Source: Sipunculus nudus
Taxonomy: Eukaryota > Annelida > Sipuncula > Golfingiida > Sipunculidae
DNA length: 64,000 nt
NCBI GenBank assembly: GCA_026874595.1
Contig: CM049315.1
Span: 72,213,416-72,277,415, forward strand
Reading direction: 5' to 3'
The first letter of the stretch is position 1. Every line of letters starts with the position of its first letter. A model generated the notes under the pieces. The model was not told the origin of the DNA. It made no database searches and was given only the letters and a program-made list of their open reading frames with translations. The translations under genes were made by a program, and so were the position numbers. Below, in pieces: positions 1,101-59,410 of this stretch.

Positions 1101-1690
1101 CCCTGGAGGCCACAGTTTTGCAGGAATCTTTTTGAAACTGACATATTGAAAGTCCTACACTATTATCTCGAAATCAATTTTTCATTTTTTTAATTCGGCC
1201 GCTAGGGGGCGCTGGGTGCAAACCTCTCCAACATATTATGTTTTGGCAATATCTCCAAAATTATAAGCCTCAATTACAAAAACTATAGTGTTTTTTTTTT
1301 CCTCTATGTCTTCTTCATGAACTCGTTTAGTCATCTGGTCTCAATCTTGTGTCACTTTGTCTGTGTGTCCGTCTGTTTCTCAGTTGTCCTCAAATCCGCT
1401 TGCTTGCCGGTTCTTTGCTTCTCACATATACCATTCTACAGGGGACAGTTTTGAAAGAATCCTTTTAAAACTATTACATCTTATGTCTTACACTAATATC
1501 TCGAAACCCATTTTTTCATTTTCCAGAATTGGCCGCTAGGGGGCGTTGCACATGACCCTCACTCACATATCATTATATTGGCCATATCTCTAAAACCCAA
1601 AGACTCAATTACATAAACTATAGCTTATGTTCTTCCTTTGAGTCTTCCCCATAACCTGGTTAAGTCATCTGGTCTCGGTCTTGTGTCACT
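1100..1690 (+). repeat. R331 tandem monomers, 2 copies
   Basis: Two monomers of about 331 bp with CTCF-like cores at 1197-1214 and 1531-1548, spaced 334 bp. Each monomer runs from GGCCACAGTTTTG through TATCTCGAAA and TTTTTCATTTT to the GGCCGCTAGGGGGCG core, then CATATCATTTTGGCCATATC, ATAAACTATAGCTTATTTTC, and a GTCACTTTGTC-GTCTGTTTCTCAG tract that leads into the next monomer. Confidence 0.88.
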
Positions 1691-1696
1691 TTGTCA

Positions 1697-2135
1697 GTAT
1701 GTCCATATAAACTTTATAAACGGAGGGAAACATGAATGCACAGAGTCATGCAGGAATGCACGATGACACGCGTTTTAGTAAGACAAAGACACGTGTAGGT
1801 ATGAGCGACAATCAGCGCAGTTTGCTCGTTTTGTGTAGGGTCCATCGGGCCAAATGCCAATTCAGGCCCGCAGCCTACGGGAGGAATTAATTGGCGTAGC
1901 GGGGACCACGGCCACTTCCTGGTAAAAACTTGTGAATAAATATACCGGACGGGCTGACCATTTTCTCAGGGCCATAGGAATGTCACCATTCCAGCGTGCC
2001 CTCAGACCTGGTCAGACCTGGTCAGACCTAAAACGCGTGCCTGCACATCTGTGCGCATGCAGGTGATTGCTGTCCAAAGTTTCAGTCGCTGTGTCCTTCA
2101 GGAAAGGACCCGAACCGTTTTTTTTTTTTTTTTTT
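1697..2135. repeat. Module C cassette, copy 2
   Basis: Near-identical to the copy at 1-440, with a T18 run at 2118-2135. It lies 1,696 bp downstream of that copy, which defines a composite C-V-N-R331 unit of about 1.7 kb. Confidence 0.9.
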
Positions 2136-2137
2136 AA

Positions 2138-2449
2138 TTGCTCGCCGGAAATCTTCGATTTCTGCAGGCAGGTTGGCCAGTCGCAAATGTCTGTTTGTTG
2201 CTTGCCGGAAATCTTCGATTTCTGCAAGCAGGTTGGTCAGTCGCGGATGTCTGTTTGTTGCTTGCCGGAAATCTTCGATTTCTGCAAGCAGGTTGGTCAG
2301 TCGCGGATGTCTGTTTGTCTGTTTGTTTGTTGCTTGCCGGAAATCTTCGATTTCTGCAAGCAGGTTGGTCAGTCGCGGATGTCTGTTTGTTGCTTGCCGG
2401 AAATCTTCGATTTCTGCAAGCAGGTTGGTCAGTCGCGGATGTCTGTTTG
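2138..2449 (+). repeat. 60-bp minisatellite, 5 units (longest array)
   Basis: Units start at 2138, 2198, 2258, 2330 and 2390. A 12-bp GTTT/GTCT insertion separates the third and fourth. This is the longest of the module V arrays; the others have two to four units. Confidence 0.9.
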
Positions 2450-2489
2450 TCTGTTTGTTTGTTTGTTTGTCTGTCTGTCTGTGTACTCT

Positions 2490-2950
2490 CTACAGGCCAC
2501 AATTTTCCAGCAATTGCTTTCAAACTTATAAAGCTGGTAGACAAGCAAAAGTCCTGGAGGCCTATTGTTTTTGGGCATTATAGGTCAAATGTCAAGGTCA
2601 AGGTCATCAAAAGTATACAAAACGGTTTTTTGTTCATATCTGTGTTAATATTGGTCGTATCTACTTCAACAGTAGCTCATTTTAATCGTCATTCCAAGGC
2701 CTGTCTTCTGGTGTGTAGCTGACTCAAATTTGCCGTAACCATGGTTACGAATTTTCGGGAAAAAGTCATGATATTCTGAAATAAGGGGTCTTATTTTTCT
2801 AACTTTGTCAGTTTTAAAGCTAGAGAGGTCTAGTTTTTTGCATGAGGTAGCATTTAACAAGTACTGCAAGATTTTATTAAAATTCTCGCGATATCTCGTT
2901 CAATATCTCGTCAAACGAGATATTTCGAGATTTCAGTAATCTTGCCCTGG
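2490..2950 (+). repeat. Module N
   Basis: Contains AAGGTCAAGGTCATC near 2595-2609, the perfect palindrome GTAACCATGGTTAC at 2735-2748, and the AATATCTCGT/ACGAGATATT hairpin at 2902-2924. It is nearly identical to 6,581-7,041 (offset 4,091 bp) and 14,914-15,374. Confidence 0.85.
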
Positions 2951-3535
2951 AGGCCACAGTTTTGCAGGAATCTTTTTGAAACTGACATATCGTAAGTCCT
3001 ACACTATTATCTCGAAAAAAATTTTTCATTTTTTGAATTCGGCCGCTAGGGGGCGCTGGGTGCAAACCTCTCCAACATATCATGTTTTGGCAATACCTTC
3101 AAAATTATAAAGCTCAATTACATAAACCACAGCTTATTTTCTTCCTCTGAGTCTTTCCAAAATCCTGGTGTAGTCATTTCGACTCAATCTTGAGTCACTT
3201 TGTCAGTGTGTCCGTCTGTTTCTCAGTTGTCCTCAAATCCGCTTGCTTGCCGGTTCTTGCGTCTCACATATAGCATTCTACAGGACACAATTTTGAAAGA
3301 ATCCTTTTAAAACTATTACATCTTATGTCTTACACTAATATCTCGAAACCGATTTTTCATTTTCCAGAATTGGCCGCTAGGGGGCGCTGCACATGACCCT
3401 GACACACATATCATCATATTGGCCATATCTCTAAAACCCAAAGACTCAATTACATAAACCATAGCTTATGTTCTTCGTCTGAGTCTTCTCCATAACCTGG
3501 TTAAGTCATCTGGTCTCGGTCTTGTGTCACTTTGT
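2950..3535 (+). repeat. R331 monomers, 2 copies
   Basis: CTCF-like cores at 3041-3058 and 3372-3389, spacing 331 bp. Nearly identical to the pair at 7132 and 7463. Confidence 0.88.
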
Positions 3536-3537
3536 CA

Positions 3538-3967
3538 GTATGTCCATATAAACTTTATAAACGGAGGGAAACCTGACTGCACAGAGTCATGCAGGAATGC
3601 ACGATGACACGCGTTTTAGTAAGACAAAGACTCGTGTAGGTATGAGCGACAATCAGCGCAGTTTGCTCGTTTTGTGTAGGGTCCATCGGGCCAAATGCCA
3701 ATAAGGGCCCGCAGCCGACGGGATGAATTAATTGGCGTAGCGGGGACCACGGCCATTTCCTGGTAAAAACTTGTGAATAAATATACCGGACGGGCTGACC
3801 ATTTTCTCAGGGCCATAGGAATGTCACCATTCCAGTGTGCCCTCAGACCTGGTCAGACCTGGTCAGACCTAAAACGCGTGCCTGCACATCTGTGCGCATG
3901 CAGGTGATTGCTGTCCAAAGTTTCGGTCGGTGAGTCCTTCAGGAAAGGACCCGAACCGTTTTTTTTT
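3538..3967. repeat. Module C cassette, copy 3 (short poly-T)
   Basis: Same cassette but with only T9 (3959-3967), GCCGACGGGATG in place of GCCTACGGGAGG, and CGGTCGGTGAGTCC in place of CAGTCGCTGTGTCC. It shares these features with the copies at 7629 and 15962, which together form a sub-family. Confidence 0.9.
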
Positions 3968-3969
3968 AA

Positions 3970-4161
3970 TTGCTTGCCGGAAATCTTCCATTTCTGCAGG
4001 CAGGTTGGCCAGTCGCAAATCTCTGTTTATTGCTTGCCGGAAATCTTCGATTTCTGCAAGCAGGTTGGTCAGTCGCGGATGTCTGTTTGTCTGTTTGTTT
4101 GTTGCTTGCCGGAAATCTTCGATTTCTGCAAGCAGGTTGGTCAGTCGCGGATGTCTGTTTG
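3970..4161 (+). repeat. 60-bp minisatellite, 3 units
   Basis: Units start at 3970, 4030 and 4102, with a 12-bp GTTT/GTCT spacer before the third. A (GTCT/GTTT)n run follows to about 4193. Confidence 0.88.
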
Positions 4162-4193
4162 TCTGTTTGTTTGTTTGTTTGTCTGTCTGTCTG

Positions 4194-4630
4194 TGTACTC
4201 TCTACAGGCCACAATTTTCCAGCAATTGCTTTCAAACTTATACAGCTGGTAGACAAGCAAAAGTCCTGGAGGCCTATTGTTTTTGGGCATTATAGGTCAA
4301 ATGTCAAGGTCAAGGTCATCAAAAGTATACAAAACGGTTTTTTGTTCATATCTGTGTTAATATTGATCGTATCTACTTCAACAGTAACTCATTTTGATCG
4401 TCATTCCAAGGCCTGTCTTCTGGTGTGTAGCTGACTCAATTTGCGGTAACCATGGTAAGCATTTTTGGGGAAAAGTGCTGATATTTTTCTAAATTTGTCA
4501 GTTTTAAAGCTACAGAGGTCTAGTTTTTTGCTTCAGGTAGCATTCACCTAGTACTACAAGATTCTATTAAGAGTCTCACAATATCTCGTATAATATCTCG
4601 TCAAACGAGATATTTCGAGATTTCAGTAAT
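4194..4630 (+). repeat. Module N
   Basis: AAGGTCAAGGTCATC near 4306-4320, RFX-like GTAACCATGGTAAG with one changed end base at 4446-4459, and an intact hairpin at 4592-4614. This is the last module before the 8.33-kb tandem duplication. Confidence 0.82.
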
Positions 4631-4689
4631 CTTGCACTGGAGGCCACAGTTTTGCAGGAATCTTTTTGAAACTGACATATCTTAAGTCC

Positions 4690-6190
4690 TACACTATTAT
4701 CTCGAAATCAATTTTTCATTTTTTTAATTCGGCCACTAGGGGGCGCTGGGTGCAAACCTCTCCAACATATCATGTTTTGGCAATATCTCCAAAATTATAA
4801 GCCTCAATTACAAAAACTATAGTTTTTTTTTTCCTCTAAGTCTTCTTCATGAACTCATTTAGTCATCTGGTCTCAATCTTGTGTCACTTTGTCTGTGTGT
4901 CCGTCTGTTTCTCAGTTGTCCTCAAATCCGCTTGCTTGCCGGTTCTTGCGTCTCACATATAGCATTCTACAGGCCACAGTTTTGAAAGAATCTTTTTAAA
5001 ACTATTACATCTTATGTCTTACACTAATATCTCCAAACCGATTTTTCATTTTCCAGAATTGGCCGCTAGTGGGCGGTGCACTCAAACTTGCACAACATAT
5101 CATTTTTTGGCCATATCTCCAAAACTATAAACATCATTCACATAAACTATAGCTTATTTTCTTCCTCTGGGTCTTTCTAAAAACCTGGTGTATTCATTTG
5201 GTCTCAATCTTGAGTCACTTTGTCTGTGTGTCCGTCTGTTTCTCAGTTGTCCTCAAATTCGCTTGCTTGCCGGTTCTTGCGTTTCACATATAGCATTCTA
5301 CAGGCCACAGTTTTGAAAGAATCCTTTTAAAACTATTACATCTTATGTCTTACACTAATATCTCGAAACCGATTTTTCATTTTCCAGAATTGGCCGCTAG
5401 GGGGCGGTGCACTCAAACTTGCACAACATATCATTTTTTGGCCATATCTCCAAAACTATAAACATCATTTACATAAACTATAGCTTATTTTCTTCCTCTG
5501 GGTCTTTCCAAAAACCTAGTGTATTCATTTGGTCTCAATCTTGAGTCACTTTGTCTGTGTGTCCGTCTGTTTCTCAGTTGTCCTCAAATTCGCTTGCTTG
5601 CCGGTTCTTGCGTCTCACATATAGCATTCTACAGGCCACAGTTTTGAAAGAATCCTTTCAAAACTATTACATCTTATGTCTTACACTAATATCTCGAAAC
5701 CGATTTTTCATTTTCCAGAATTGGCCGCTAGGGGGTGGTGCACTCAAACTTGCACAACATATCATTTTTTGGCCATATCTCCAAAACTATAAACATCATT
5801 TACATAAACTATAGCTTATTTTCTTCCTCTAGGTCTTTCCAAAAACCTGGTGTATTCATTTGGTCTCAATCTTGAGTCACTTTGTCTGTGTGTCCGTCTG
5901 TTTCTCAGTTGTCCTCAAATTCGCTTGCTTTCCGGTTCTTGCGTCTCACATATAGCATTCTACAGGCCACAGTTTTGAAAGAATCCTTTTAAAACTATTA
6001 CATCTTATGTCTTACACTAATATCTCGAAACCGACTTTTCATTTTACAGAATTGGCCGCTAGGGGGCGGTGCACTCAAACTTGCACAACATGTCATTTTT
6101 TGGCCATATCTCCAAAACTATTAACCTCATTTACATAAATTATAGCTTATTATCTTCCTCTTAGGTTTATTCATAACATGATTAAGTCAT
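4690..6190 (+). repeat. R331 tandem array, 5 monomers
   Basis: CTCF-like cores lie at 4731, 5061, 5392, 5723 and 6054, with spacings of 330, 331, 331 and 331 bp. The core at 4731 reads GGCCACTAGGGGGCGCTG; later ones are GCCGCTAGGGGGCGGTG with single changes (AGTGGGCGG at 5061, GGGGGTGG at 5723). The third and fourth monomers differ by only a few bases. This is the clearest uninterrupted R331 array. Confidence 0.92.
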
Positions 6191-6552
6191 CTGTTCTCAA
6201 TCTTGGGTCAGTATGTTTGCCTGTTTGTCAGTTGTCCTCACTTTGCCTGCTTCCTGGTTCTTGCGTCTCACATGTAGCATTCTACTGGCCACAGTTTTGA
6301 AGGAATCGTTTTGTAAATTACACTTGTCATATATCGTGATGATATCTGGAAGTCCTATGTTTATTATTTAAATAAGTCAAAGGTCAAGGTCAAGGTGATC
6401 AAAATATATCAAAATCTTATTTTCTTTAGAACTTTGTTAATATTGGTTCTTTCTTCACAAACTATGGATTATTTTCTTTCACTTTGACACTGCTCGTTCA
6501 TCTGACTAACCTTACATCATTTCCGGCAAGCGCGTGACCTCAGGTCATCTAG
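6190..6552 (+). mobile_element. R331-derived segment with hairpin-CTAG end
   Basis: A diverged R331-like stretch without the CTCF-like core. It carries AAGGTCAAGGTCAAGGTGATC near 6380 and ends TTTCCGGCAAGC, then the palindrome TGACCTCAGGTCA at 6535-6547, then TCTAG and T. A hairpin just before CTAG followed by T resembles a Helitron/Helentron terminus. Equivalent ends occur at 14868, 22509, 26005, 33772 and 50280. That the element ends here is inference. Confidence 0.5.
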
Positions 6553-7040
6553 TTTGTTTGTCTGTCTGTCTGTGTACTCTCTACAGGCCACAATTTTCCA
6601 CCAATTGCTTTCAAACTTATAAAGCTGGTAGACAAGCAAAAGTCCTGGAGGCCTATTGTTTTTGGGCATTATAGGTCAAATGTCAAGGTCAAGGTCATCA
6701 AAAGATTACAAAACGGTTTTTTGTTCATATCTGTGTTAATATTGGTCCTATCTACTTCAACAGTAGCTCATTTTAATCGTCATTCCAAGGCCTGTCTTCT
6801 GGTGTGTAGCTGACTCAAATTTGCCGTAACCATGGTTACGAATTTTTGGGAAAAAGTCATGATATTCTGAAATAAGGGGTCTTATTTTTCTAACTTTGTC
6901 AGTTTTAAAGCTAGAGAGGTCTAGTTTTTTGCATGAGGTAGCATTTAACAAGTACTGCAAGATTTTATTAAAATTCTCGCGATATCTCGTTCAATATCTC
7001 GTCAAACGAGATATTTCGAGATTTCAGTAATCTTGCCCTG
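6553..7040 (+). repeat. GTCT microsatellite plus module N
   Basis: Short GTTT/GTCT run, then CTCTACAGGCCACAATTTT, an AGGTCA cluster near 6,680-6,700, the palindrome GTAACCATGGTTAC at 6826-6839 and the hairpin at 6993-7015. Confidence 0.85.
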
Positions 7041-7622
7041 GAGGCCACAGTTTTGCAGGAATCTTTTTGAAACTGACATATCGTAAGTCCTACACTATTA
7101 TCTCGAAACAACTTTTTCATTTTTTGAATTCGGCCGCTAGGGGGCGCTGGGTGCAAACCTCTCCAACATATCATGTTTTGGCAATACCTTCAAAATTATA
7201 AAGCTCAATTACATAAACCACAGCTTATTTTCTTCCTCTGAGTCTTTCCAAAATCCTGGTGTAGTCATTTCGACTCAATCTTGAGTCACTTTGTCAGTGT
7301 GTCCGTCTGTTTCTCAGTTGTCCTCAAATCCGCTTGCTTGCCGGTTCTTGCGTCTCACATATAGCATTCTACAGGACACAGTTTTGAAAGAATCCTTTTA
7401 AAACTATTACATCTTATGTCTTACACTAATATCTCGAAACCGATTTTTCATTTTCCAGAATTGGCTGCTAGGGGGCGCTGCACATGACCCTGACACACAT
7501 ATCATCATATTGGCCATATCTCTAAAACCCAAAGACTCAATTACATAAACTATAGCTTATGTTCTTCCTTTGAGTCTTCCCCATAACCTGGTTAAGTCAT
7601 CTGGTCTCGGTCTTGTGTCACT
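7040..7622 (+). repeat. R331 monomers, 2 copies
   Basis: CTCF-like cores at 7132-7149 and 7463-7480 (the second begins GGCTGCTAGGGGG). Offset from the pair at 3041/3372 is 4,091 bp. Confidence 0.88.
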
Positions 7623-7628
7623 TTGTCA

Positions 7629-8058
7629 GTATGTCCATATAAACTTTATAAACGGAGGGAAACATGAATGCACAGAGTCATGCAGGAATGCACGATGACA
7701 CGCGTTTTAGTAAGACAAAGACTCGTGTAGGTATGAGCGACAATCAGCGCAGTTTGCTCGTTTTGTGTAGGGTCCATCGGGCCAAATGCCAATTCAGGCC
7801 CGCAGCCGACGGGATGAATTAATTGGCGTAGCGGGGACCACGGCCATTTCCTGGTAAAAACTTGTGAATAAATATACCGGACGGGCTGACCATTTTCTCA
7901 GGGCCATAGGAATGTCACCATTCCAGTGTGCCCTCAGACCTGGTCAGACCTGGTCAGACCTAAAACGCGTGCCTGCACATCTGTGCGCATGCAGGTGATT
8001 GCTGTCCAAAGTTTCGGTCGGTGAGTCCTTCAGGAAAGGACCCGAACCGTTTTTTTTT
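7629..8058. repeat. Module C cassette, copy 4 (T9)
   Basis: T9 sub-family copy with T-run at 8050-8058, followed by two 60-bp minisatellite units at 8061 and 8121. It has three partial ACCTGGTCAG repeats. Confidence 0.9.
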
Positions 8059-8060
8059 AA

Positions 8061-8180
8061 TTGCTTGCCGGAAATCTTCCATTTCTGCAGGCAGGTTGGC
8101 CAGTCGCAAATCTCTGTTTATTGCTTGCCGGAAATCTTCGATTTCTGCAAGCAGGTTGGTCAGTCGCGGATGTCTGTTTG
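8061..8180 (+). repeat. 60-bp minisatellite, 2 units
   Basis: Two units identical in layout to those at 3970 and 4030. A GTTT/GTCT run joins them to the variant hairpin at 8195. Confidence 0.88.
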
Positions 8181-8194
8181 TCTGTTTGTTTGTT

Positions 8195-9316
8195 GCTTGC
8201 CGGAATCAAAGATTTCGGCAAGCATATTGCTCAGTTGCGTATGTCTGTTTGTCTGTTTGTTTGTCTGCACTCTCCTGGCCACAATTTTGCCACAATCACC
8301 TTGAAACTTACAGGGATGATAAAAAACATAATTTCTAGGTGCCCTATTGTTTTTGGTTAAAATAGGTCAAAGGTCAAGGTCAAGGTCACGACAGGTATGG
8401 TTAACGGTTTTTGCACTATAACTTCGCCATAATTAGGCTTATCCACTTCTGCAATAGCTCATTTTTTTCGTCATCACCTGGCCTTTCTTTTGACATGTAG
8501 CTTACTTAAATTTGCTGTTACCATGGTTACGCAATTTTGGGGAGAAATCATGGAATTTCCTGATATTTTTCAAATTTGCAGCAATCGTACTGATTCTGAG
8601 ATATTTTATGTAACACAAGAATATCTCGAAATTGCTTTTTTCAGATTTTGGAAATGGCCGCCAGGGGGCGTTGCAGATGAAAAAACATGAAAATTTGTTT
8701 TGGTGCTATACCTCCAGAACTATTAAACATTGGGCCATTTCCATCACAGCACCTTCAACTGGGGTCTATGGGCTTATTTTTGCGCATAGGTGCCAAAGTG
8801 CGCCATTGCCAGATTTCTCTATTTTTGGGGTAAAACTTTTGAATTTTGAAAATATGCAGTTTTCAGCTTCTAACTCTGTCAGTTTTTATGCTGGAGAGGT
8901 CAATTTTTTTGCATCTTGTAGCCCTTGGTGAGCTCTCGGTGATCCAATCAAAAATCTTGCAAAATCTCGCACCGTTTCTCGTCAAACGAGAGTCTTCGAG
9001 ATTTCATTAAATATGACCTACAGGTTGCATTTTTTTAACAATGGCTTTGAAATTGATATATTTTGTGTTATTTATAAATATCTCGAAATCAGTTTTTCAT
9101 TTTTTGGAAATAGCCACCAGGGGGCGTGGTACCTGAAACACTGTAACATATCATTTTTCTGCAATATCTAAAATAATCTTAAACATGGCACAATTTTTAT
9201 CGTTGTTTCTTAAACTAGGAACATTGGCTTATTCCTCCGCACATGTAGCTTTGTGCTGTCGTTACCATGGTTACCAAATTTGTGGGTTAAACTTGACGAT
9301 CTGAAAATATGCAGTT
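8195..9316 (+). mobile_element. Long N-type element start and body, 1.1 kb
   Basis: Starts with a strong hairpin at 8195-8223 (arms GCTTGCCGGAATC and GATTTCGGCAAGC, loop AAA, one mismatch), then GTTT/GTCT and CTGGCCACAATTTTGCC. A DR1-type AGGTCAAAGGTCA at 8364-8376 runs into further half-sites. RFX-like GTTACCATGGTTAC occurs at 8517-8530 and 9261-9274, and CTCF-like cores at 8656-8673 (GGCCGCCAGGGGGCGTTG) and 9112-9129 (AGCCACCAGGGGGCGTGG). A frame open in the copies at 16.8, 26.3 and 34.1 kb is broken here by one extra T, which argues against coding. Confidence 0.7.
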
Positions 9317-10240
9317 TTTGGCTTCTATCTCGGTTAATATTTATGTGTCAAGGGTCTAGTTTTTTGCATAAGGCTGCTTCCCCTTGGTTCTGAGTCATTC
9401 AATTGCAAGTCTCGTCAAATTTCGCTCGGTTTATCGTCAAACGAGAAAAAACGAGATTTCACGGAAATGCTTATAACTCGGCGACTTTTACAGCTACACA
9501 GGTGTAGTTTTCGGCATTTCATAACATATGACCAGCTTGACACGCCAGAAAAGAAATCAGGCCACATCTCGCACCATATCTCGTCAAGCGAGAAAAAACG
9601 AGATATCATGGAAATGCTTATAACTAGGCGACTTTTACAGCTACTCAGGTCTAGTTTATGGCATTTGGTAACATTTGGCCAACTTGAAATAGTAAAACTG
9701 CGATACTTGGCGAAATCTCGCACTATATCTGGTCAAATGTGGAAAAACGAGATTTCACAGAAATGCATATAAGTCGGCGACTTTCACGGCTAGACAGGTC
9801 TAGTTTTTGGCATTCATTAACATTTGGACGGCTTGACATGACAAACCTGCAAGACTGGCCAAATCTCGCACCATATCTCGTGAAACGATAAAAAAGGAGA
9901 TTTCACAGAAATACTAATAACTCGGCAACTTTTACAGCTAGACAGATGTAGTTTTCGCCATTTCATAACATTTAGAGAGTTTGATATGACAAATCTACAA
10001 GACTGGCCAAATCCTGCACCATATCTCGTCAAACGAGAAAACACGAGAGTACACGGAAATGCTTATAACTCGGCGACTTTTACAGCTAGACGGATCTAGT
10101 TTTCGCCATTTTGTAACGTTTGGCCGTCTTGACATAATAAAACTGCTCGTCTTGCCAAATCTCGTACTATATCTCGTCAAGCGAGAAAAAAACATGATTT
10201 CACGTAAATGCTGATAACACGGCGACTTTTGCAGCTAGTT
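9317..10240 (+). repeat. R148 tandem array, about 6 monomers
   Basis: The GAAATG landmark recurs at 9464, 9611, 9760, 9908 and 10056, and a variant at about 10205: spacings 147, 149, 148, 148 and 149 bp. Each diverged monomer has TCTCGTCAAACGAGA or a close variant, then GAGATTTCAC, GAAATGCTTATAACTCGGCG, ACTTTTACAGCTA and GGTCTAGTTTT. The same block arrangement appears once in each module N, so R148 and part of N probably share an ancestor. The open frames on both strands are shadows of this array. Confidence 0.9.
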
Positions 10241-10244
10241 TGTT

Positions 10245-10291
10245 GCTTGCCGGAATCAAAGATTTCGGCAAGCATGTTGGTCAGTTGCGTA

Positions 10292-10322
<31 letters not shown>

Positions 10323-12250: not shown

Positions 12251-12473
12251 GTCAATCTTGTCTCACAAAGTCACTATGTCTGTCTGTTCGTCTTTTGTTG
12301 TCAGTTTTGTCTGCTTGCCTGTTCTTTTGTCCCATATGTCATTCTACGGGCCACATATTCTCAGCAATGTCCCTGAGAGTCATTCCATTAATAGAAAACC
12401 GACAATATGTTCTTTCTGTCCGTCTGTGTTTCACTTCCGATTTCCGGCAAGCGTTCGACCTATGGTCGTCTAG
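12250..12473 (+). mobile_element. Segment ending in CGACCTATGGTCG-TCTAG
   Basis: GTCT-rich sequence with TTCCGGCAAGCG, then the hairpin CGACCTATGGTCG at 12456-12468 and CTAG at 12470-12473. Equivalent ends lie at 20762, 30069, 37846, 48848, 58097 and, with CTCAG in the centre, 63600. Interpreted as a possible Helitron/Helentron-like terminus; the function of the end is inferred. Confidence 0.5.
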
Positions 12474-15955: not shown

Positions 15956-15961
15956 TTGTCA

Positions 15962-18570: not shown

Positions 18571-18574
18571 TGTT

Positions 18575-18621
18575 GCTTGCCGGAATCAAAGATTTCGGCA
18601 AGCATGTTGGTCAGTTGCGTA

Positions 18622-48860: not shown

Positions 48861-48871
48861 TCTAGTCTGTT

Positions 48872-48902
<31 letters not shown>

Positions 48903-50297: not shown

Positions 50298-50842
50298 TTT
50301 GTCTGTCTGTCTGTCTGTCTGTGTACTCTCTACAGGCCACAATTTTCCAGCAATTGCTTTCAAACTTATACAGCTGGTAGACAAGCAAAAGTCCTGGAGG
50401 CCTATTTTTTTTTGGCATTATAGGTCAAATGTCAGGTCAAGGTCATCAAAAGTATACAAAACGGTTTTTTGTTCATATCGGTGTTAATATTGGTCGTATC
50501 TACTTCAACAGTAGCTCATTTTAATCGTCATTCCAAGGCCTGTTTTCTGGTATGTAGCTGACTCAATTTGCGGTAACCATGGTAACGCATTTTTGGGGAA
50601 AAGTGCTGATATTTTTCTAAATTTGTCAGTTTTAAAGCTACAGAGGTCTAGTTTTTTGCTTCAGGTAGCATTCACCTAGTACTACAAGATTCTATTAAGA
50701 GTCTCGCAATATCTCGTATAATATCTCATCAAACGAGATATTTCGAGATTTCAGTAATCTTGCCCTGGAGGCCACAGTTTTGCAGGAATCTTTTTGAAAC
50801 TGGCATATCTTAAGTCCTACACTATTATCTCGAAATCAATTT
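50298..50842 (+). repeat. Module N truncated at a chimeric junction
   Basis: GTCT microsatellite, RFX-like GTAACCATGGTAAC at 50573-50586, hairpin with one changed base near 50,724 (CTCATC). Module N runs as far as ATCTCGAAATCAATTTTT near 50,842 and then switches to 1,274-bp unit sequence. Confidence 0.82.
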
Positions 50843-51676
50843 TTTTCAGATTTTGGAAATGGCCGCCAGGGGGCGTTGCAGATGAAAAAACATGAAAATT
50901 TGTTTTGGTGCTATACCTCCAGAACTATTAAACATTGGGCCATTTCCATCACAGCACCTTAAACTAGGGTCCGTGGGCTTATTTTTGCGCATAGGTGCCA
51001 AAGTGCGCTATTGCCAGATTTCTCTATTTTTGGGGTAAAACCTTTGAATTTTGAAAATATGCAGTTTTCAGCTTCTAGCTCTGTCAGTTTTTATGCTAGA
51101 GAGGTCAAAATTTTTGCATCTTGTAGCCCTTGGTGAGTTCTCGGTGATCCAACCAAAAATCTTGCAAAATCTCGCACCGTTTCTCGTCGAATGAGATTTC
51201 GCGATTTCACGGTGACATGCCCTATAGGCCACAGATATGCAGGCATCCTTTTGAAACTGATACATGTTACGTCATACACTAATATCTCGAAAGACATTGT
51301 TCAGTTTTTGGAAAATTACCGCTAGGGGGCGCTGCACTGAAACCCCGTACCTACTATCATTGTTTAACCATATCTCCAAAACTACACATTTTAGGTACAT
51401 AAACTGTACACCATATGAATTGGCGTTTCATGGCCTTTCTGCCCATGACCTCTTTTGTTTAATCATACACGGTCCCCGCAAATTTTTAGCAACTTTGTAA
51501 AAATTAAAACCCGCATGCACAAATACATATGCCATCACGCATGCATGCACGCGTTTTAGTATGAAAGACAGACACGCTTTCCCGTGACTGCAAAAATTAT
51601 AGCCTTCGCCGTATAAAATAAGTGACCACAGGCACTCTTTGCGGGCCGGTTTGCCATTTCTGTCGCGTTATAGTTT
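50843..51676 (+). mobile_element. Partial 1,274-bp unit (3' two thirds)
   Basis: Corresponds to about 41,790-42,620 of the 1,274-bp unit, with CTCF-like cores at 50861-50878 and 51317-51334 and the GCATGCATGCACGCG tail near 51,540. It carries point differences from the perfect array (for example TCCGTGGGC for TCCATGGGC), so it is an older or separately evolving copy. Confidence 0.85.
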
Positions 51677-52870
51677 GTTGCTTGCCGGAATCAGAGATTT
51701 CGACAAGTATGTTGATCAGTTCCGTTTGTTGCTTGCCGGAAATCTTCGATTTTCGCAAGCATGTTGATCACCCGCGTATGTTTGTTTGTTTGTTTGTTTG
51801 TTTGTTTGTTTGTCTGTCTGTTTGTTTGTCTGTATGTACACGCGCTACAGGCCACAGTTTTCAAGCAATCGCTCTGAAACTTATGCATTAAGTGTAAGAT
51901 TGGTTCTCCTCGGAGCCTATTGTTTTTGGTCATGATCGGTCAAAGGTTAAGGTCAGGGTCACCAAAAAACCTAAAATTTTTACTTTCTTCATATCTTTGT
52001 CAATAATAATCGTAGCCGCATAATCTGTAGCTCATTTTATTCCTCACTATGTTAGCTTTCCAAGTGCTGGCAAATTTTTCCGGTCAATGGTTACCATGGT
52101 AACGTATTTTTGGGGGAAATTCAGAAAATTCGAAAATTTCCCTCCAAATTTCTCATTATTTAAGTTAGAGAGGTCTAGTTTTTTGCAATGCGTAGCATTT
52201 AATATGCTCTATGCGAAATTAATGTAAGTCTCGCAAAATCTCGTGCCATTTGTCGTCAAATGAGACTTTTCGAGATTTCATTAAATACGATTTACAGGTG
52301 GCAGTTTTACAGCTAAAGTTCTGAAAGTGGCATATTTTCTGTTGTTCTGTATTATCTCGAACTTGTTTTTTCATTTTTCGGAAATAGCCACCAGGGGGCG
52401 TGGTACTGGAAACACTACAACTTATCATTTTTCCGCAATATCTAAAAAAATATTAAGCAAAGAACAATTTTTTTTGTCGCATCTAAAACTAGGATCATTG
52501 CCTTATTCCTTCGTACATTTAGCCTTGTGCTGCCGTTACCATGGTTACCAAATTTTGGGGTAAAACTTGACAATCTGAAATACGGAGTGTTCCTGCTTCT
52601 GTCTCTGTCAATATTTGCGATAGAACGCTCTGGTTTTTGGCGTTAGATAGCATTAGTTTACTTCTTAGTCATTCAATAGAAAGGCTCGTCATATCTCGCA
52701 CCGTTTCTCGTGAAACGAGAACACGAGACCATTCAAAGAAATGCCTATAATTCTGTCATTTTTTACGCTACAGACACATGGTTTTCAGCGTTGGGTAGCG
52801 CCTGACACTCGCAGTCACATTCAGGGGTCATATTGTAAGTCTCGTCAAATCTCGCGCCGTTTTTCGCCAA
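51676..52870 (+). repeat. Diverged hairpin-N-CTCF-R148 segment
   Basis: Two GCTTGCCGG units (about 51,679 and 51,729), the second with a TTCGATTTTCGCAAGC arm. A long GTTT/GTCT run lies at about 51,777-51,832, then AGGTTAAGGTCAGGG near 51,955 and the canonical RFX-type palindrome GTTACCATGGTAAC at 52090-52103. A CTCF-like AGCCACCAGGGGGCGTGG lies at 52386-52403, GTTACCATGGTTAC at 52535-52548, and R148-like sequence follows to 52,870. Related to 58.1-59.4 kb at about +6,310 bp. Confidence 0.78.
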
Positions 52871-52990
52871 ACCACGAAGACCCGCGCAATTGCCGCAAGT
52901 GGCGACAGGGTCCTTACGGTGGGCGGCCGGCGTGTGCAGCGGTGCGTGACGGCCTCTCCGGGCCCTGTCTGTGATCATACATGTTGGAGG
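52865..52990. repeat. GC-rich cassette, copy 3
   Basis: CACGAAGACCCGCGC, GGTCCTTACGGTGGGCGGC, CGGCGTGTGCAGCGG and GACGGCCTCTCCGGGCC, then ATGTTGGAGGCACAG. It precedes a GCTTGCC hairpin, as at 41.03 kb. Confidence 0.8.
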
Positions 52991-53079
52991 CACAGTCCGA
53001 AGAACTTTATTGCTTGCCCGAAATCTTCGATTTTCGCAAGCATGTTGATCACCCGCGTATGTTTGTTTGTTTGTTTGTT

Positions 53080-55217
53080 GCTTGCCGGAATCAGAGATTT
53101 CGACAAGTATGTTGATCAGTTCCGTTTGTTTGTTTGTCTGTATGTCCCCGCTCTACAGGCCACAATTTTGCATCAATCGTCCTGAAACTTATAGATAGAG
53201 TGTATAATCGGTTCTTCTCGGAGCCTATTGTTTTTGGTCATGATCGGTCAAGGGTCAAGGTCAGGGTCACCAAAAAGCTCAAAAACGGTTTTTTCTTCAT
53301 ACCTTCGTCAAAAATAGCCGTAGGCACCTAATCTGTTGCCCGTTTTATTTGCCACTGCATGGCCACTTCCAACACTGCAAAATTGCCTCATTTCGCTGTT
53401 ACCATGGTTAAGCAATTTTGGGGAGAAATCATGGAATTTCGTGATATTTTTCAAATTTGCAGCAATTTTACTGATTCTGAGATATTTTATGTAACATAAG
53501 AATATCTCGAAACGGGTTTTTCAGATTTTGGAAATGGCCGCCAGGGGGCGTTGCAGATGAAAAAACATGAAAATTTGTTTTGGTGCTATACCTCCAGAAC
53601 TATTAAACATTGGGCCATTTCCATCACAGCACCTTAAACTAGGGTCCATGGGCTTGTTTTTGCGCATAGGTGCCAAAGTGCGCTATTGCCAGATTTCTCT
53701 ATTTTTGGGGTAAAACCTTTCAATTTTGAAAATATGCAGTTTTCAGCTTCCAACTCTGTCAGTTTTTATGCTAGAGAGGTCAAAATTTTTGCATCTTGTA
53801 GCCCTTGGTGAGTTCTCGGTGATCCAACCAAAAATCTTGCAAAATCTCGCACCGTTTCTCGTCGAATGAGATTTCGCGATTTCACGGTGACATGCCCTAT
53901 AGGCCACAGATATGCAGGCATCCTTTTGAAACTGATACATGTTACGTCATACACTAATATCTCGAAAGCAATTGTTCAGTTTTTGGAAAATTTCCGCTAG
54001 GGGGCGCTGCACTGCAACCCCGTACCTACTATCATTGTTTAACAATATCTCCAAAACTACACATGTTAGGTACATAAACTGTACACCATATGAATAGGCG
54101 TTTCATGGCCTTTCTGCCCATGACCTCTTTTGTTTAATCATACACGGTCCCCACAAATTTTAGCAACTATGTAAAAATTAAAACCCGCATGCACCAATAC
54201 ATATGCCATCACGCATGCATGCACGCGTTTTAGTATGAAAGACAGACACGCTTTCCCGTGACTGCAAAAATTATAGCGTTCGCCGTATAAAATAAGTGAC
54301 CACAGGCACTCTTTGCCGGCCGGTTTGCCATTTCTGTCGCGTTATAGTTTATTGCTTGCCGGAATCAGAGATTTCGACAAGTATGTTGATCAGTTCCGTT
54401 TGTTTGTTTGTCTGTATGTCCCCGCTCTACAGGCCACAATTTTGCACCAATCGTCCTGAAACTTATAGATAGAGTGTATTATCGGTTCTTCTCGGAGCCT
54501 ATTGTTTTTGGTCATGATCGGTCAAGGGTCAAGGTCAGGGTCACCAAAAAGCTCAAAAACGGTTTTTTCTTCATACCTTCGTCAAAAATAGCCGTAGGCA
54601 CCTAATCTGTTGCCCGTTTTATTTGCCACTGCATGGCCACTTCCAACACTGCAAAATTGCCTCATTTCACTGTTACCATGGTTACGCAATTTTGGGGAGA
54701 AATCATGGAATTTCGTGATATTTTTCAAATTTGCAGCAATTTTACTGATTCTGAGATATTTTATGTAACATAAGAATATCTCGAAACGGGTTTTTCAGAT
54801 TTTGGAAATGGCCGCCAGGGGGCGTTGCAGATGAAAAAACATGAAAATTTGTTTTGGTGCTATACCTCCAGAACTATTAAACATTGGGCCATTTCCATCA
54901 CAGCACCTTAAACTAGGGTCCATGGGCTTGTTTTTGCGCATAGGTGCCAAAGTGCGCTATTGCCAGATTTCTCTATTTTTGGGGTAAAACCTTTCAATTT
55001 TGAAAATATGCAGTTTTCAGCTTCTAACTCTGTCAGTTTTTATGCTAGAGAGGTCAAAATTTTTGCATCTTGTAGCCCTTGGTGAGTTCTCGGTGATCCA
55101 ACCAAAAATCTTGCAAAATCTCGCACCGTTTCTCGTCGAATGAGATTTCGCGATTTCACGGTGACATGCCCTATAGGCCACAGATATGCAGGCATCCTTT
55201 TGAAACTGATACATACC
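53080..55217 (+). mobile_element. 1,274-bp repeat, second array (1.7 copies)
   Basis: One full and one partial unit, landmarks 1,274 bp apart (53134/54408, 53743/55017). CTCF-like cores at 53536, 53992 and 54810; RFX-like sites at 53398 (last base changed, GGTTAA) and 54672. It differs from the 41.35-46.03 kb array by shared changes such as AAGGTCAGGGTCACC and TTTCGCGATTTC, so the two arrays homogenised separately. It is truncated at the same point as the first array. Confidence 0.9.
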
Positions 55218-55345
55218 ACGAAGACACGTGCAATTGCCGCTAGTGGCGACAGGGTCCTTACGGTGGGCAGCCGGCGTGTGCAGCGGTGCTTGTCGGCCTT
55301 TCCGGGCCCTATCTATTGTCATACATAATGGAGGCGGAGGCACAG
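55217..55345. repeat. GC-rich cassette, copy 4
   Basis: More mutated than the other copies (GTGCTTGTCGGCCTTTCCGGGCC, ATAATGGAGGCGGAGGC). Confidence 0.78.
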
Positions 55346-56079
55346 TCCAGACTTTATTACTTGTATTACTTGCCGGAAATCTTCGATTTTCGAAAGCATG
55401 TTGGTCACCCGTGTATGTTTGTTCCTTCATCTTATGTATTATACTAATATCTCAAAAATTATTTTCATTTTCCTGATATGGCTGCTAGGGGGCGCTGCAC
55501 TTGACCCTTCCAAAAAAATCAGTTTTTGAACATATTTCCGTAAGAGTATACCTATATTACACAAACTATAGCTTATTTTCTTTCTCTTGGTCTTCTTCAA
55601 AACATGGTCAAGTCATCTGGTCTCCATCTTGTGTCACTTTGTCAGTATGTCTGTCCGTTTGTCATTTATCGTCAAATTCGCCTGCTTGCTGGTTTTTGCA
55701 CTTTAGATATAGCAATCAACAAGTCAGATATATGGACGAATCCTTTTGAAACTATTACATCTTATGTCATACACTAATATCATGAAACGCATTTGTCGTC
55801 TTCAGGATATGTCCACTAGAGGGCGCTGCAGTCGAACATCCCAAGTATATCATTATTTGGCCATATCTCCAAAATTATAAGCCTCAATTACATAAACTAT
55901 AGCTTATTTTCTTCCTCTAAGTATTCTCCATAACCTGATTAAGTCATCTTGTCTCCATCTTGTGTCCCTTTGTAAGTTTGTCTGTTTGTTTGTCGGTTGT
56001 CCTCAAATTCGCCGGCTTTTTGGTTCTTGAGTCTCACTGATAGCATTCTACAGGCCACCGTTTTGAAAGGATCATTTTT

Positions 56080-57294
56080 AGCTCAGCTGACTTTCAGTCA
56101 TGCTGGGCTATAGCGATGGGTCTTTGTCCGTCGTCCTTCCATCTGTCCATCCTACTGACCTGCCGTCCGTCTGTTAGCAGGGCACAAATCGTAACTGTAA
56201 GGGCTAGGGTCATGAACCCTATGTAGTCTTAGAGGTTCTAAAATGATCTCCTTGCAAACCTGAAATTAGGTCACTGACCTATATTCTCGAAGTTACAGGG
56301 TGTGTATGCACCCCCCATAAATAATTCTTTTAGCTAAAATTTTCATCCAAAACCTTCCATCTTTCACATACAGCTCATCTACCAACAGGGGAAGAACCAT
56401 AATTATTTTGAAGTCAACAGGTCAAAGGTCAAGGTCACAGGAGTCCCTTTATTTAATGCCTGTGGATGCATTTTAAGCCAAATCTTTCATCCCAATTCTT
56501 TGAACTTTAACATATATTTCACCTACTAAGAGGGAGAAGAATCCTATAGATTTTTAGGTCACAAGATCAAAGATCAGGGTCACAGGATCCAATTTTTTTA
56601 AAAGGTCGTGAAAACATTTCAAGCTAGACATTTCATTCCAAACTTCCCAGCACTGATATCGCTTCTCTGCCAACAGGGGAAAAGACCTGTTGATTTTGAG
56701 GTCAAAGGTCAAGTTCACTGCACCCACTTTTTGTGTGGAGTCATTTTCAGGAAACCTTTCAATCTATACCTTCCAATTGTCATATATGGCTTACCTACCA
56801 ATAGGGGAAGAAGCCTATCGATGTCGAGTTCAAAAGGTCAAAGGTCAAGGACACATTACTTAATTATTCTAAATGGTTGTGAACATTTTGCAAGTGAAAG
56901 TGTTCAACCCAAACCTTCAGTCTTTCACATATGCCACATCTATGCATCACTCAATTAGATTCAAACTTCATATTTATAAGCACCCGTTTCTCAATATTTC
57001 TTGCATGGATTTCCTTGATTTTTGCTATATATTTTGATCTTATATTTGCCCTTTGTGGTGTTTCTTTTGAGACTGACAGGTATCAAGCAAGCTATGGGAA
57101 TAGTTACTGATAGCTTAACAATCATTCATTTTTCCTTAGACCATCAAGTCACTGTGTTTTAACCAGACATAGGTGATGTATATTTCTGTTGTCGTAGAAA
57201 ATTTCAACATATTGGCAAATTGGTTCTTCAAAATGTGACTGGAAGTTGTGAATCTCAGCCCATGATGTGGCAGGTCATGCTTGGCAGCTGAGCG
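56080..57294. mobile_element. 1.21-kb inserted element with short inverted ends (copy 2)
   Basis: GCTCAGCTG at 56081-56089 and CAGCTGAGC at 57285-57293, in the same R331 position as copy 1, so the insertion came before the segment duplication. Interior tandem repeats with AGGTCAAAGG-type motifs lie at about 56,420-56,850. A frame related to the one at 47.4 kb ends earlier, so coding is unlikely. Confidence 0.7.
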
Positions 57295-58109
57295 TCATGA
57301 CCCATGGGTCACTTGTTAAACTATTACATCTTACATCTTACAGTAACAGATTATTCATTTTCTGGATATTGCCAAAAGGGGGGCGTTGCACTCGCCTCTC
57401 CCCTATATATATTTCTTTGCCATATCTACAAAACTATAAACTTCAATTACAAACACTATGACTTATTGTCTTCCTTTGAATCTTCTCCATAATCTGAGTT
57501 AGTCATCTGGTCTTATTCTTGTGTCACTTTTTCAGGATGTCTGTCTGTTTGTCAGTGATCCTCTATTTCACCTGCTTGCTGGATCTTGCGTCTTACAGTT
57601 AGCAATCTTCAGGCCACAGTTTTTCAGTATGTCTGTCTGTTTGTCAGTGATCCTCATTTTCGCCTGATTGCTGGATCTTGCGTCTTACAGTTAGCAATCT
57701 TCAGGCCACAGTTTTGAAGGAATCCTTTTGGAATTGGAACATCTCTTACAATAATATATACATCTTGGAACATTTCTTACAATAATATCTCAAAAGAAAT
57801 TTTTAATTTTTGGGATATGGCCGCTAGGGGATGCTGCGGTAGAGCCTCCACACCATATCATTTTTTGGCCATATCTCCGACATTATAAACTCTACCTTCA
57901 CTTGTAGTCAGTTATCTCAGGTGTGTCAGTATATTTGTATGTTTTGAGCTATGTCTGATTTCATGTTTTTTGTGTGATATATGTCGTTCAACAGGCCAAA
58001 CGTTCCAGCAATCGCTTTAAAAGTCATTCAATTGATAGAAAACCGTCAGTTTGTCCTGTTTGTCCATCTGTCTGTCATTTAAGTCCGGCAAGCTCTCGAC
58101 CTATGGTCG

Positions 58110-59410
58110 TCTAGTTTGTTTGTCTGTCTGTTTGTTTGTCTGTATGTACACGCGCTACAGGCCACAGTTTTTAAGCAATCGCTCTGAAACTTATGCATTA
58201 AGTGTAAGATTGGTTCTCCTCGGAGCCTATTGTTTTTGGTCATGTTCGGTCAAAGGTCAAGGTCAGGGTCACCAAAAAACCTAAAATATTTATTTTCTTC
58301 ATATCTTCGTCAATTATAATCGTAGCCGCATAATCTGTAGCTCATTTTATTCCTCTTTATGTTATCTTTCCAAGTGTTAGCACATTTTTCCGGTCAAATG
58401 TTACCATGGTAACGTATTTTTGGGGGAAAATCAGAAAATTCGAAAATGTCACTCTAAATTTCTCATTTTTTAAGTTAGAGAGGTCTAGTTTTTTGCGTTG
58501 TGTAGGATTTAATATGCTCTATGGAAAATTAATGGAAGTCTCGCAAAATCTCGTGCCATTTGTCGTCAAATGAGACTTTTCTAGATTTCATTAAATACGA
58601 TTTAGAGGTGCCATTTTTACAGCTAAGGTTCTAAAAGTGACATATTTTCTGTTGTTCTGGATTATCTCGAACTTGTTTTTTCATTTTTTTAAATTAGCCA
58701 CCAGGGGGCGTGGTACTGGAAACACTGCAACTTACCATTTTTCTGCAATATCTCAAAAAATATTAAACGTGGCACACTGTTTTCTGTCTTATCTGAAACT
58801 AGGATCGTTGGCTTATTCCTGCGTACATGTAGCTTTGCGCTGCTGTTACCATGGTTACCAAATTTTGGGGTAAAACTTGGCATTCTGAAAATAATAAGTT
58901 TTTTGCTTCTATCTCTGTTGATATTTATACTACAAGGGTCTAGTTTTCTGCATGAGGTAGCATTCCCTTGCCTCTAATGCAGTTAATTGCAAGTCTCGTA
59001 GAATCTCGCTCTGTTTTCCGTCAAACGAGAAATTACGAGATTTCACAGAAATGCTTATAACTTGGTCACCTTTTCGGCTAAAGAGGAGCAGTTTTCAGCA
59101 TTTTGTTGCGTTTTGGAAGCTTAACATGATAATAACTTATATCTCGCCACATCTCGTATCAACTCCCTCCAAACGAGAATATTCGAGAATTCGAACAAAT
59201 GTCTATATCTCTGTCATTTTAATGCCAGAGATTTTATTTTTCTATTGTTCAAGATTCACTTGACTAGTTTGAAGTGACAAAATTGAATATCTCGTCTTAT
59301 CTCGCACCATTTCTTGTCAAACGAGAACATGGGACCATTCAAAGATACGCCTATAATTCTGTTATTTTAATGCTGAAGACCTTTAGTTTTCAGCATTCGA
59401 TAGCGTCTAA
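58110..59410 (+). repeat. Diverged N / CTCF-like / R148 segment
   Basis: GTTT/GTCT run near 58,115-58,145; GGTCAAAGGTCAAGGTCAGGG near 58,249; canonical RFX-type palindrome GTTACCATGGTAAC at 58400-58413; CTCF-like AGCCACCAGGGGGCGTGG at 58696-58713 (last core in the window); GTTACCATGGTTAC at 58845-58858; then three or four decayed R148-like monomers to about 59,410. Confidence 0.78.

What the first reader, a model, noticed from the sequence alone, without database searches (positions are those of the whole stretch)
1197..58713. About 80 CTCF-like sites, all on one strand, conserved across otherwise diverged modules
Three module families with very different flanks (R331, long N, 1,274-bp unit) keep the same C-(A/C)GGGGGCG-type core, one or two per module, always in the same orientation, roughly every 0.7 kb for 58 kb. 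In vertebrates CTCF site orientation governs loop anchoring, so a long co-directional array could act as a strong insulator or boundary. The alternative is shared ancestry of the modules plus duplication.
Basis: partly seen in the sequence, partly recalled or inferred. Interest (0 to 1): 0.78.

Follow-up and report, generated by a model that had tools for sequence, protein, structure and literature searches.

The report
Mobile-element array carrying CTCF-like sites
The roughly 80 one-way CTCF-like sites are real, but they ride on a head-to-tail pile of a rolling-circle mobile element that occurs very often in this animal genome, so their shared direction comes from tandem duplication and is no evidence of a purpose-built insulator.

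Summary
In detail: 79 sites of 14 bits or more on +, none on -, one per 737 bp. The flanks are not "very different": a core-masked profile covers 79 of 79 sites. The array is built from a non-autonomous Helentron (HINE): dispersed copies show 5' subterminal repeat and hairpin, TGTC/TGTT microsatellite, 3' subterminal repeat and palindrome, insertion after TT, and one empty site without target duplication (pattern control 0 of 100). GGCCRCYAGGGGGCG occurs 6,979 times in the 1.43-Gb genome. Direction is trivial: non-CTCF words share it and 0 of 3,739 self-alignments are inverted. The genome has a CTCF ortholog with human-like fingers 3-5 and native CTCF-like sites, so binding is plausible. Raw, the core changes as fast as its flanks; matched for base and without CpG columns it is the slowest 19-bp stretch (0.72 of expected; window 0.54). 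In genome copies the deficit lies in amplifying lineages. This fits mild selection, more likely on the element than on a host boundary. Binding and insulation are untested.

The parts
1..59600 (+). Head-to-tail array of HINE-derived modules; it begins before the window, and its right edge is approximate
   Evidence: 0 of 3,739 self-BLAST HSPs on the minus strand; TRF rows; sequence partly read
1196..58713 (+). 79 CTCF-like 19-mers of 14 bits or more (commonest TGGCCGCTAGGGGGCGGTG 13, CGGCCGCTAGGGGGCGCTG 11, TGGCCGCCAGGGGGCGTTG 11, TAGCCACCAGGGGGCGTGG 7)
4641..6312 (+). Example of the 331-bp CTCF module in tandem, 5.1 copies
   Evidence: TRF; sites at 4730, 5060, 5391, 5722, 6053
41340..46029 (+). 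1,274-bp unit with two CTCF-like sites per unit, copies 99.95-99.97% identical
   Evidence: sites 41802/42258, 43076/43532, 44350/44806
9014..9232 (+). Example of the 'long N' module (TAGCCACCAGGGGGCGTGG), aligned by the core-masked profile
   Evidence: coordinates; site 9111
443..623 (+). 60-bp minisatellite that is the element's 5' terminal hairpin (subTIR + IR) in tandem; 46 hairpin matches read on + in the window (8 on -, the hairpin being nearly palindromic)
   Evidence: TRF; the same hairpin is the 5' end of dispersed copies
25995..26060 (+). 3' subTIR + palindrome + CTAGTTTG joined directly to a 5' hairpin: head-to-tail element junction (same at 33762)
6525..6550 (+). One of 13 element 3' ends found in the window (6525, 12446, 14858, 20752, 22499, 25995, 30059, 33762, 37836, 48838, 50270, 58087, 63590), 13 on + and 0 on -
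6277..6484 (+). Second module class, weakly matched by the core-masked profile, with AGGTCA repeats at the core position (also 663, 14610, 22251, 25747, 30115, 37892, 50021, 54423)
   Evidence: 37 weak-class rows of 261, 15.6-28.9 bits; TCAAGGTCA 59:0
4161..22285 (+). Recent segmental duplication 4161-13991 = 12473-22285, 98.1%
24147..40600 (+). Segmental duplication 24147-32699 = 31922-40600, 96.4%
63590..64000 (+). Element 3' end followed by the start of the next module: the array resumes in the same direction

Best explanation
The 58 kb is a head-to-tail array of a non-autonomous Helentron (HINE) whose internal 331-bp monomer carries one strong CTCF-like site. SHOWN: HINE anatomy in dispersed copies, insertion after TT, one empty site, one-strandedness of the array, 6,979 exact cores in the genome, a CTCF ortholog. 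INFERRED: a helicase/Rep from an autonomous Helentron-like element spreads the element by rolling circle; unequal exchange and segmental duplication (and possibly element-into-element insertion) lengthen arrays, so all sites face one way automatically. INFERRED, about 0.6: the host CTCF binds intact cores. INFERRED, about 0.35: binding helps the element (for example by keeping it open), since the core is mildly constrained and, in genome copies, the constraint sits in lineages that amplify while single insertions drift. A duty of this array as a host insulator is possible but has no support of its own.
For: Of 20 dispersed 8-kb loci, 16 have the 5' subTIR GCTTGCCGGAA + complementary IR, 15 of those 16 preceded by TT, 13 a TGTC/TGTT microsatellite, 15 the 3' subTIR + palindrome, 13 both ends; the two end patterns occur in 0 of 100 Markov loci, and the 3' one on the opposite strand in 0 of 20. 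L046 empty site GTGTTCATT|TAATCTG, filled between Ts, no target duplication. These match HINE substructures of oyster and mite (passages of PMC7492417; PMC4067079). Helitron_like_N (PF14214): 143 matches. 6,979 exact GGCCRCYAGGGGGCG, mirrored control 0. One-strandedness; of 100 listed places on C1, neighbours within 5 kb share strand 67 to 2, further ones 14 to 16. CTCF ortholog: best PDB match CTCF 7w1m, E 2.9e-109; key residues of fingers 3, 4, 5 identical to human. Element-free flanks: 14 matches of 14 bits or more in 108,008 bp against means of 0.8-1.6. Core without CpG columns, base-matched: 0.72 of expected in 199 copies, 0.73 in 141 genome copies, 0.54 in 58 window copies, rank 1 of 43, 43 and 39. 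Genome copies: tips 127 against 138 expected, branches with 5 or more descendants 24 against 54. Deep changes avoid high-information positions: Fisher 0.0044 at 5 or more, 0.0001 at 8 or more descendants. Changes lose less score than a flank-spectrum null (-2.60 against -2.96, P 0.0015).
Against: The window's 58 copies show no excess of constraint in deep branches (ratio 1.01, rank 16 of 24; Fisher 0.75). The core is not unique: the block at +81 has a lower deep/tip ratio in three of four non-window runs (0.38 against 0.49; 0.32 against 0.42; 0.47 against 0.49), and blocks at +47/+51 and -41 are nearly as slow overall (0.74-0.75). Score loss of deep against tip changes is not significant on the leave-out tree (-2.01 against -3.02, P 0.099), though -1.21 against -2.85 on the flank tree. 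Rate against matrix information: Spearman -0.10 (P 0.68); without CpG -0.43 (P 0.11). Motif-breaking CpG changes are as common as tolerated ones (17/16 and 10/7), and broken GGCTGCTAGGGGGCG (816) outnumbers GGCCACTAGGGGGCG (247). Slow G-runs could be mutational; only 17 flank G columns serve as yardstick. Fingers 1, 2, 6 and 7 differ from human at one or more key positions. Native sites favour CAGGTGGC/CAGATGGC. No autonomous partner with matching ends was sought or found. Dispersed copies all come from contig C1.
Confidence: 0.78

Rival explanations
1. Host-maintained insulator or boundary macrosatellite, working like DXZ4 or D4Z4: the host keeps a co-directional CTCF array to anchor loops.
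For: 79 strong co-directional sites; in the window the core has 39 changes against 73 base-matched, rank 1 of 39; CTCF gene present; DXZ4 and D4Z4 are CTCF-binding tandem arrays (PMC3218863 passages; PMC2639723, start of abstract in a listing).
Against: The core occurs 6,979 times on both strands; broken cores are common; direction is shared by non-CTCF words; the same mild constraint is seen in dispersed copies.
Confidence: 0.1
2. Coincidence: the element ancestor happened to contain a CTCF-like word that nothing binds; preservation is shared ancestry, gene conversion and slow mutation of G-runs.
For: Raw core rate equals flank; symmetric CpG decay; other blocks nearly as slow.
Confidence: 0.26
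3. The core is kept for another reason: a different zinc-finger protein, or a step of the Helentron cycle, recognises conserved monomer blocks including this one.
For: Blocks at -45..-27, +47/+51 and +81 behave similarly; 320 matches of the CTCF finger query in the genome show many other zinc-finger genes.
Against: On deep branches the spared positions are those of high information in the CTCF matrix; a 19-bp match of up to 28 bits to CTCF is unlikely by accident.
Confidence: 0.15
4. A classical satellite unrelated to transposition.
For: Long tandem arrays with higher-order duplications.
Against: Dispersed copies with defined ends, insertion after TT and an empty site.
Confidence: 0.03

Closest known systems
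Cg_HINE / Pearl elements of bivalves (non-autonomous Helentrons)
   Same: 5' subTIR + IR, GTCY-type microsatellite, central tandem repeats, 3' subTIR + palindrome, T-rich/TT insertion, no target duplication, uniform orientation of repeats within the element (PMC7492417 passages)
   Different: Monomer 331 bp rather than about 160 bp, carries a CTCF-like site, and is piled into an array of tens of kb; CTCF has 0 occurrences in the main text of PMC7492417
DINE-1 / HINE families of Drosophila and mite
   Same: subTIRs, 3' palindrome, T-rich target without duplication (PMC4067079 passages)
   Different: The 3' subTIR ends about 22-25 bp from the 3' end here, not 38-60 as in the mite; sequences were not compared
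SINE-borne CTCF sites of rodents, dog and opossum
   Same: A mobile element spreads thousands of CTCF motif copies; a survival benefit to the element has been proposed (PMC3368268 passages)
   Different: There retrotransposed SINEs with ChIP evidence; here a rolling-circle DNA element with no binding data
DXZ4 / D4Z4 macrosatellites
   Same: Tandem unit with CTCF binding (PMC3218863 passages; D4Z4 from a listing)
   Different: DXZ4 is an X-linked array in which promoter and CTCF site outlast the rest; here the unit is found very often across the genome, and the core is only mildly slower than its flanks

Membership tests
HINE (non-autonomous Helentron) | 5' subTIR with complementary inverted repeat | tested here: met
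   16 of 20 dispersed loci (searched as one pattern with up to 2 mismatches per arm); 0 of 100 Markov loci
HINE (non-autonomous Helentron) | 3' subTIR followed by a palindrome near the 3' end | tested here: met
   15 of 20 loci; 0 of 100 Markov loci, 0 of 20 on the opposite strand; 13 ends in the window, all on +
HINE (non-autonomous Helentron) | Microsatellite and central tandem repeats | tested here: met
   microsatellite within 160 bp in 13 of 20 loci; 331-bp monomers in the window
HINE (non-autonomous Helentron) | Insertion in T-rich/TT targets without target-site duplication | tested here: met
   TT before 15 of 16 5' ends; one empty site (L046) in 13 loci compared; the other 12 scored 20-63 and were not examined further
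HINE (non-autonomous Helentron) | No coding capacity, autonomous Helentron partner with the same ends | tested here: inconclusive
   Window ORFs were listed but not searched against families; 143 Helitron_like_N matches exist, their ends were not compared
CTCF binding site | Match to the CTCF matrix well above chance | tested here: met
   79 against means of 0.65-1.4; matrix recalled
CTCF binding site | A CTCF with matching fingers in the same genome | tested here: met
   fingers 3-5 identical at the four key residues, finger 6 one of four, finger 7 two of four
CTCF binding site | Occupancy in vivo | not testable with these tools
   no ChIP or CUT&RUN data
CTCF insulator macrosatellite (DXZ4-like) | Core conserved beyond the rest of the unit | tested here: inconclusive
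   raw rate equals flank, about 140th of 198 windows; base-matched without CpG the slowest window, 0.54 in the window and 0.72 overall, but other blocks close behind
CTCF insulator macrosatellite (DXZ4-like) | Single or few host loci | tested here: not met
   6,979 exact cores; the 100 listed fall in 30 clusters of 20 kb on C1 alone
CTCF insulator macrosatellite (DXZ4-like) | CTCF-dependent contact insulation | not testable with these tools
   no Hi-C

The most novel reading that the evidence does not exclude
A rolling-circle DNA transposon of an invertebrate has made CTCF binding part of its own life cycle: lineages that keep the site multiply, dead copies lose it, and the result is thousands of CTCF sites, many in long one-way arrays that reshape the host's chromatin loops. 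This would be a direct case of the proposal that CTCF binding protects mobile elements from silencing.
Probability: 0.24. Interest if true: 0.75.

Novelty: new variant of a known kind. Interest (0 to 1): 0.48.

Why it matters
Mobile elements are known to spread CTCF sites in mammals, by SINEs. If a Helentron-type element does so in an invertebrate, repeat-driven rewiring of genome folding is not a mammalian speciality. The tens-of-kb one-way arrays would then be a natural test of whether CTCF orientation matters in an animal group where directionality has not been found (the squid case reported in PMC10658182, passages). The split between drifting single copies and constrained amplifying lineages, if it holds in a larger set, is a testable signature of selection on the element itself.

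Tried and rejected
Direction as a regulatory feature: rejected, because other repeated words and all self-alignments at E 1e-20 share it; of the 12 words tested, ACCATGGT is its own reverse complement (34:34), and AGGTCA 143:15, ATATCTC 151:31 and GTTACCATGGTTAC 15:6 lean without being exclusive. A first window-only scan put the core among the top 15-bp blocks, level with TATCTCGAAA. A script read the core two columns off, so its scores are void and it stopped with an error; corrected. Overlapping loci made 6 of 224 rows double; counts were repeated on 218. The 24 windows left out +81 through the occupancy filter, which flattered the core; include it. Naming the host: molluscan haemocyanin domain gave no match, but no control rang either; the bivalve leaning rests on resemblance to HINE/Pearl and is not shown. 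A viral-contig scan for GGCCGCTAGGGGGCGCTGCAC found 0. Paper searches for a known CTCF-bearing repeat of this kind: listings seen were 3 of 3, 20 of 590, 23 of 23, 12 of 2,154, 10 of 477, 8 of 6,171; none shown was one, which is not proof of absence. The fourth CpG count (GGCCGCTAGGGGGCA) did not complete; GGCCGCTAGGGGGTG gave 72. Rows dropped before counting: from 447 profile hits, 261 distinct rows spanned the core, 37 weak-class rows were set aside (224), 6 coordinate duplicates (218), then 19 copies fetched by the core itself (199).


Full report
What was checked. With a CTCF matrix recalled from memory (JASPAR MA0139.1) the window has 79 sites of 14 bits or more on the + strand and none on the - strand; 20 Markov sequences of each order give on average 0.65 and 1.4. 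They run from 1196 to 58713, one per 737 bp. The claim of very different flanks is not: the sites sit in a recognisably shared context, TATCTCGAAA..TTTTTCATTTT..core..CATATCTCCAAAACTAT, and a profile with the core masked covers 79 of 79 sites with hits of 60 bits or more. Eighty-one contexts (80 sites of 12.9 bits or more plus one weaker) collapse to 63 distinct and 23 clusters at 90%, and the array contains 96-99.97% identical duplications of 1.3-9.8 kb.

Why all sites face one way. Other repeated words are one-sided too: TATCTCGAAA 59:0, TCAAGGTCA 59:0, TACAGGCCACA 42:0, TCTCGTCAAACGAGA 21:0, TTGCTTGCCGGAAATC 24:0; less strictly AGGTCA 143:15, ATATCTC 151:31 and the near-palindrome GTTACCATGGTTAC 15:6; the palindrome ACCATGGT is 34:34 as it must be. 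None of 3,739 self-alignments at E 1e-20 is inverted. Among the first 100 genomic places of the exact core (all on the first 36 Mb of contig C1), neighbours within 5 kb share strand 67 times and differ twice; more distant neighbours 14 and 16. Co-direction follows from head-to-tail duplication.

What the array is made of. The window lies at C10:72213416-72277415 of a 1.43-Gb genome in 153 contigs; the exact core GGCCRCYAGGGGGCG occurs 3,782 + 3,197 times, its mirror image never. Twenty dispersed 8-kb loci (15 chosen by the core, 5 by a flank word, all on C1) contain discrete elements of about 0.7-4.5 kb with shared ends. By pattern, 16 of 20 have the 5' hairpin GCTTGCCGGAA..TTTCGGCAAGC, 15 of these 16 directly after TT; 13 have a TGTC/TGTT microsatellite; 15 have a 3' end CGGCAAGC..CGACC..GGTCG..CTAGTTT; 13 have both ends. 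Neither pattern occurs in 100 Markov copies of the loci, nor the 3' one on the opposite strand of the 20 loci. Two pairs, L046/L057 and L048/L059, look like relatives, so the loci are not all independent. In L046 the host is a minisatellite and a neighbouring unit shows the unfilled site: GTGTTCATT|TAATCTG; the filled unit reads GTGTTCATT[element]TTAATCTG, so the element sits between Ts without a target duplication beyond them. The other 12 loci compared gave no such view. These are features of HINEs described for oyster and mite (passages read: PMC7492417; PMC4067079). The genome has 143 matches to Helitron_like_N, seven of them in open frames over 2,000 residues; a partner with matching ends was not sought. 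In the window 13 element 3' ends lie on + and none on -, and two (25995, 33762) run straight into a 5' hairpin; the 60-bp minisatellite is the 5' hairpin in tandem.

Can the core be a CTCF site? Fingers 3, 4 and 5 are identical to human at the four key helix positions; finger 6 keeps one of four and finger 7 two of four; other fingers differ as well. In 108,008 bp of element-free flank there are 14 matches of 14 bits or more (one place, in L055, counted on both strands), against means of 0.8 and 1.6 in Markov sequence (largest single runs 3 and 6) and 0.8 with permuted matrices (largest 7); at 18 bits or more there are 4, against 0-0.2. Several read CAGGTGGC or CAGATGGC. These flanks surround element insertions and are not a random sample of the genome. 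Canonical CTCF sites thus appear to be in use, and the element's core is a close variant. Binding is inferred, not shown.

Is the core constrained? Of 447 profile hits, 261 distinct rows spanned the core, 224 belonged to the CTCF module, 218 after removing coordinate duplicates, and 199 after removing 19 copies fetched by the core itself. A site of 14 bits or more is present in 55 of 58 window copies and 131 of 160 genome copies, or 112 of 141 without the focal ones; several isolated copies are broken. Raw changes on 205 rows: 10.8 per core column, 9.9 per flank column, about 140th of 198 windows. But the core is rich in G, C and CpG. Matched for base and with CpG columns left out, on trees built without the window tested, the core is the slowest stretch: 132 changes against 183 expected in 199 copies (0.72, rank 1 of 43), 104 against 142 in 141 genome copies (0.73, rank 1 of 43), 39 against 73 in the 58 window copies (0.54, rank 1 of 39); other blocks follow closely (+51 and -41: 0.74-0.75 in all copies). 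Most of the deficit is in the five-G run, which might also mutate slowly for its own reasons; only 17 flank G columns serve as yardstick. Against selection: motif-breaking and tolerated CpG changes are about equal (17 and 16; 10 and 7), rate and matrix information are not significantly correlated, and in the genome broken GGCTGCTAGGGGGCG has 816 places and tolerated GGCCACTAGGGGGCG 247; on C1, counted as 20-kb clusters, 48 and 22, so part of the excess is amplification of a subfamily.

Depth of branches. In 199 copies the core has 144 tip changes against 165 expected but only 26 on branches with 5 or more descendants against 61; the ratio 0.49 is second of 30 windows after +81 (0.38). With 8 or more descendants 0.42 (second, +81 0.32). 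Genome-only copies (141) give 0.49, second after +81 (0.47) at 5 or more, and first at 3 or more. Window-only copies (58) give 1.01, rank 16 of 24: there the deficit is equal in tips and deeper branches. Deep changes avoid high-information positions: Fisher 0.0044 (all, 5 or more), 0.0001 (8 or more), 0.0226 and 0.0144 (genome-only), 0.75 (window-only); without CpG positions 0.018, 0.0023, 0.047, 0.080 and 1.0. The loss of matrix score per change, deep against tip, is not significant on the leave-out tree (P 0.099). Parsimony, gene conversion and sampling from contig C1 are limits; several windows and thresholds were looked at, so these P values are only indicative.

Reading. The array is a pile of HINEs; its CTCF-like sites are inherited from the element. 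The core is mildly constrained, together with other blocks of the monomer. In genome copies, individual insertions drift nearly freely while lineages that multiply tend to keep the core. This fits selection on the element better than maintenance of this array by the host, but the window data alone do not decide between them. Schmidt et al. proposed for mammalian retrotransposons that CTCF binding may protect elements from repression (PMC3368268, passages). In Spiralia, squid TAD boundaries carry a CCCTC-like motif without identified directionality (PMC10658182, passages). I saw no report of a Helentron carrying CTCF sites in the listings, most of which were capped.

Noticed in passing
window 663-864, 6277-6484, 14610-14817, 22251-22459, 25747-25954, 30115-30320, 37892-38095, 50021-50226, 54423-54621: A second module class, weakly matched by the core-masked CTCF profile (15.6-28.9 bits), carries AGGTCAAGGTCA repeats (nuclear-receptor half-site-like, name recalled) at the core position; TCAAGGTCA is 59:0 on one strand.
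   Followed up: partly
window 1062, 2906, 4596 and 18 more places to 40398: TCTCGTCAAACGAGA, a short inverted repeat, occurs 21 times on + and 0 on -; related-looking 148-bp tandem units lie at 9434-10238, 17764-18568, 27275-28081 and 35048-35854.
   Followed up: no
window about 46895-48130 and 56070-57310: A 1.2-kb stretch of another kind with GGTCAAAGGTCAAGGTCAC words interrupts a module in both copies of the 43888-48449 / 53073-57627 duplication; it may be an inserted element.
   Followed up: no
window 59910-61357: A 365-bp unit in 3.9 tandem copies beside the array, without CTCF-like sites.
   Followed up: no
G000:C1 about 62.2-68.1 Mb: 56 of the 100 listed places of the flank word CATATCTCCAAAACTATAAAC on C1 (0.3-94.4 Mb) fall in this stretch; possibly a pericentromeric region.
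   Followed up: no
L047, L048, L051, L055, L060, L062 (flanks): CTCF-like sites of CAGGTGGC/CAGATGGC type outside the element; all such matches together are about ten times more than expected.
   Followed up: partly
block at +81 from the core start in the 331-bp monomer: Deep branches spare this block more than the CTCF-like core (ratio 0.32-0.38 in all copies); what it does is unknown.
   Followed up: no
G000:C7:69271462-69272253: A second zinc-finger gene is the next best match to the CTCF finger array (41% identity, query 17-285); could be a CTCF-like paralogue.
   Followed up: no
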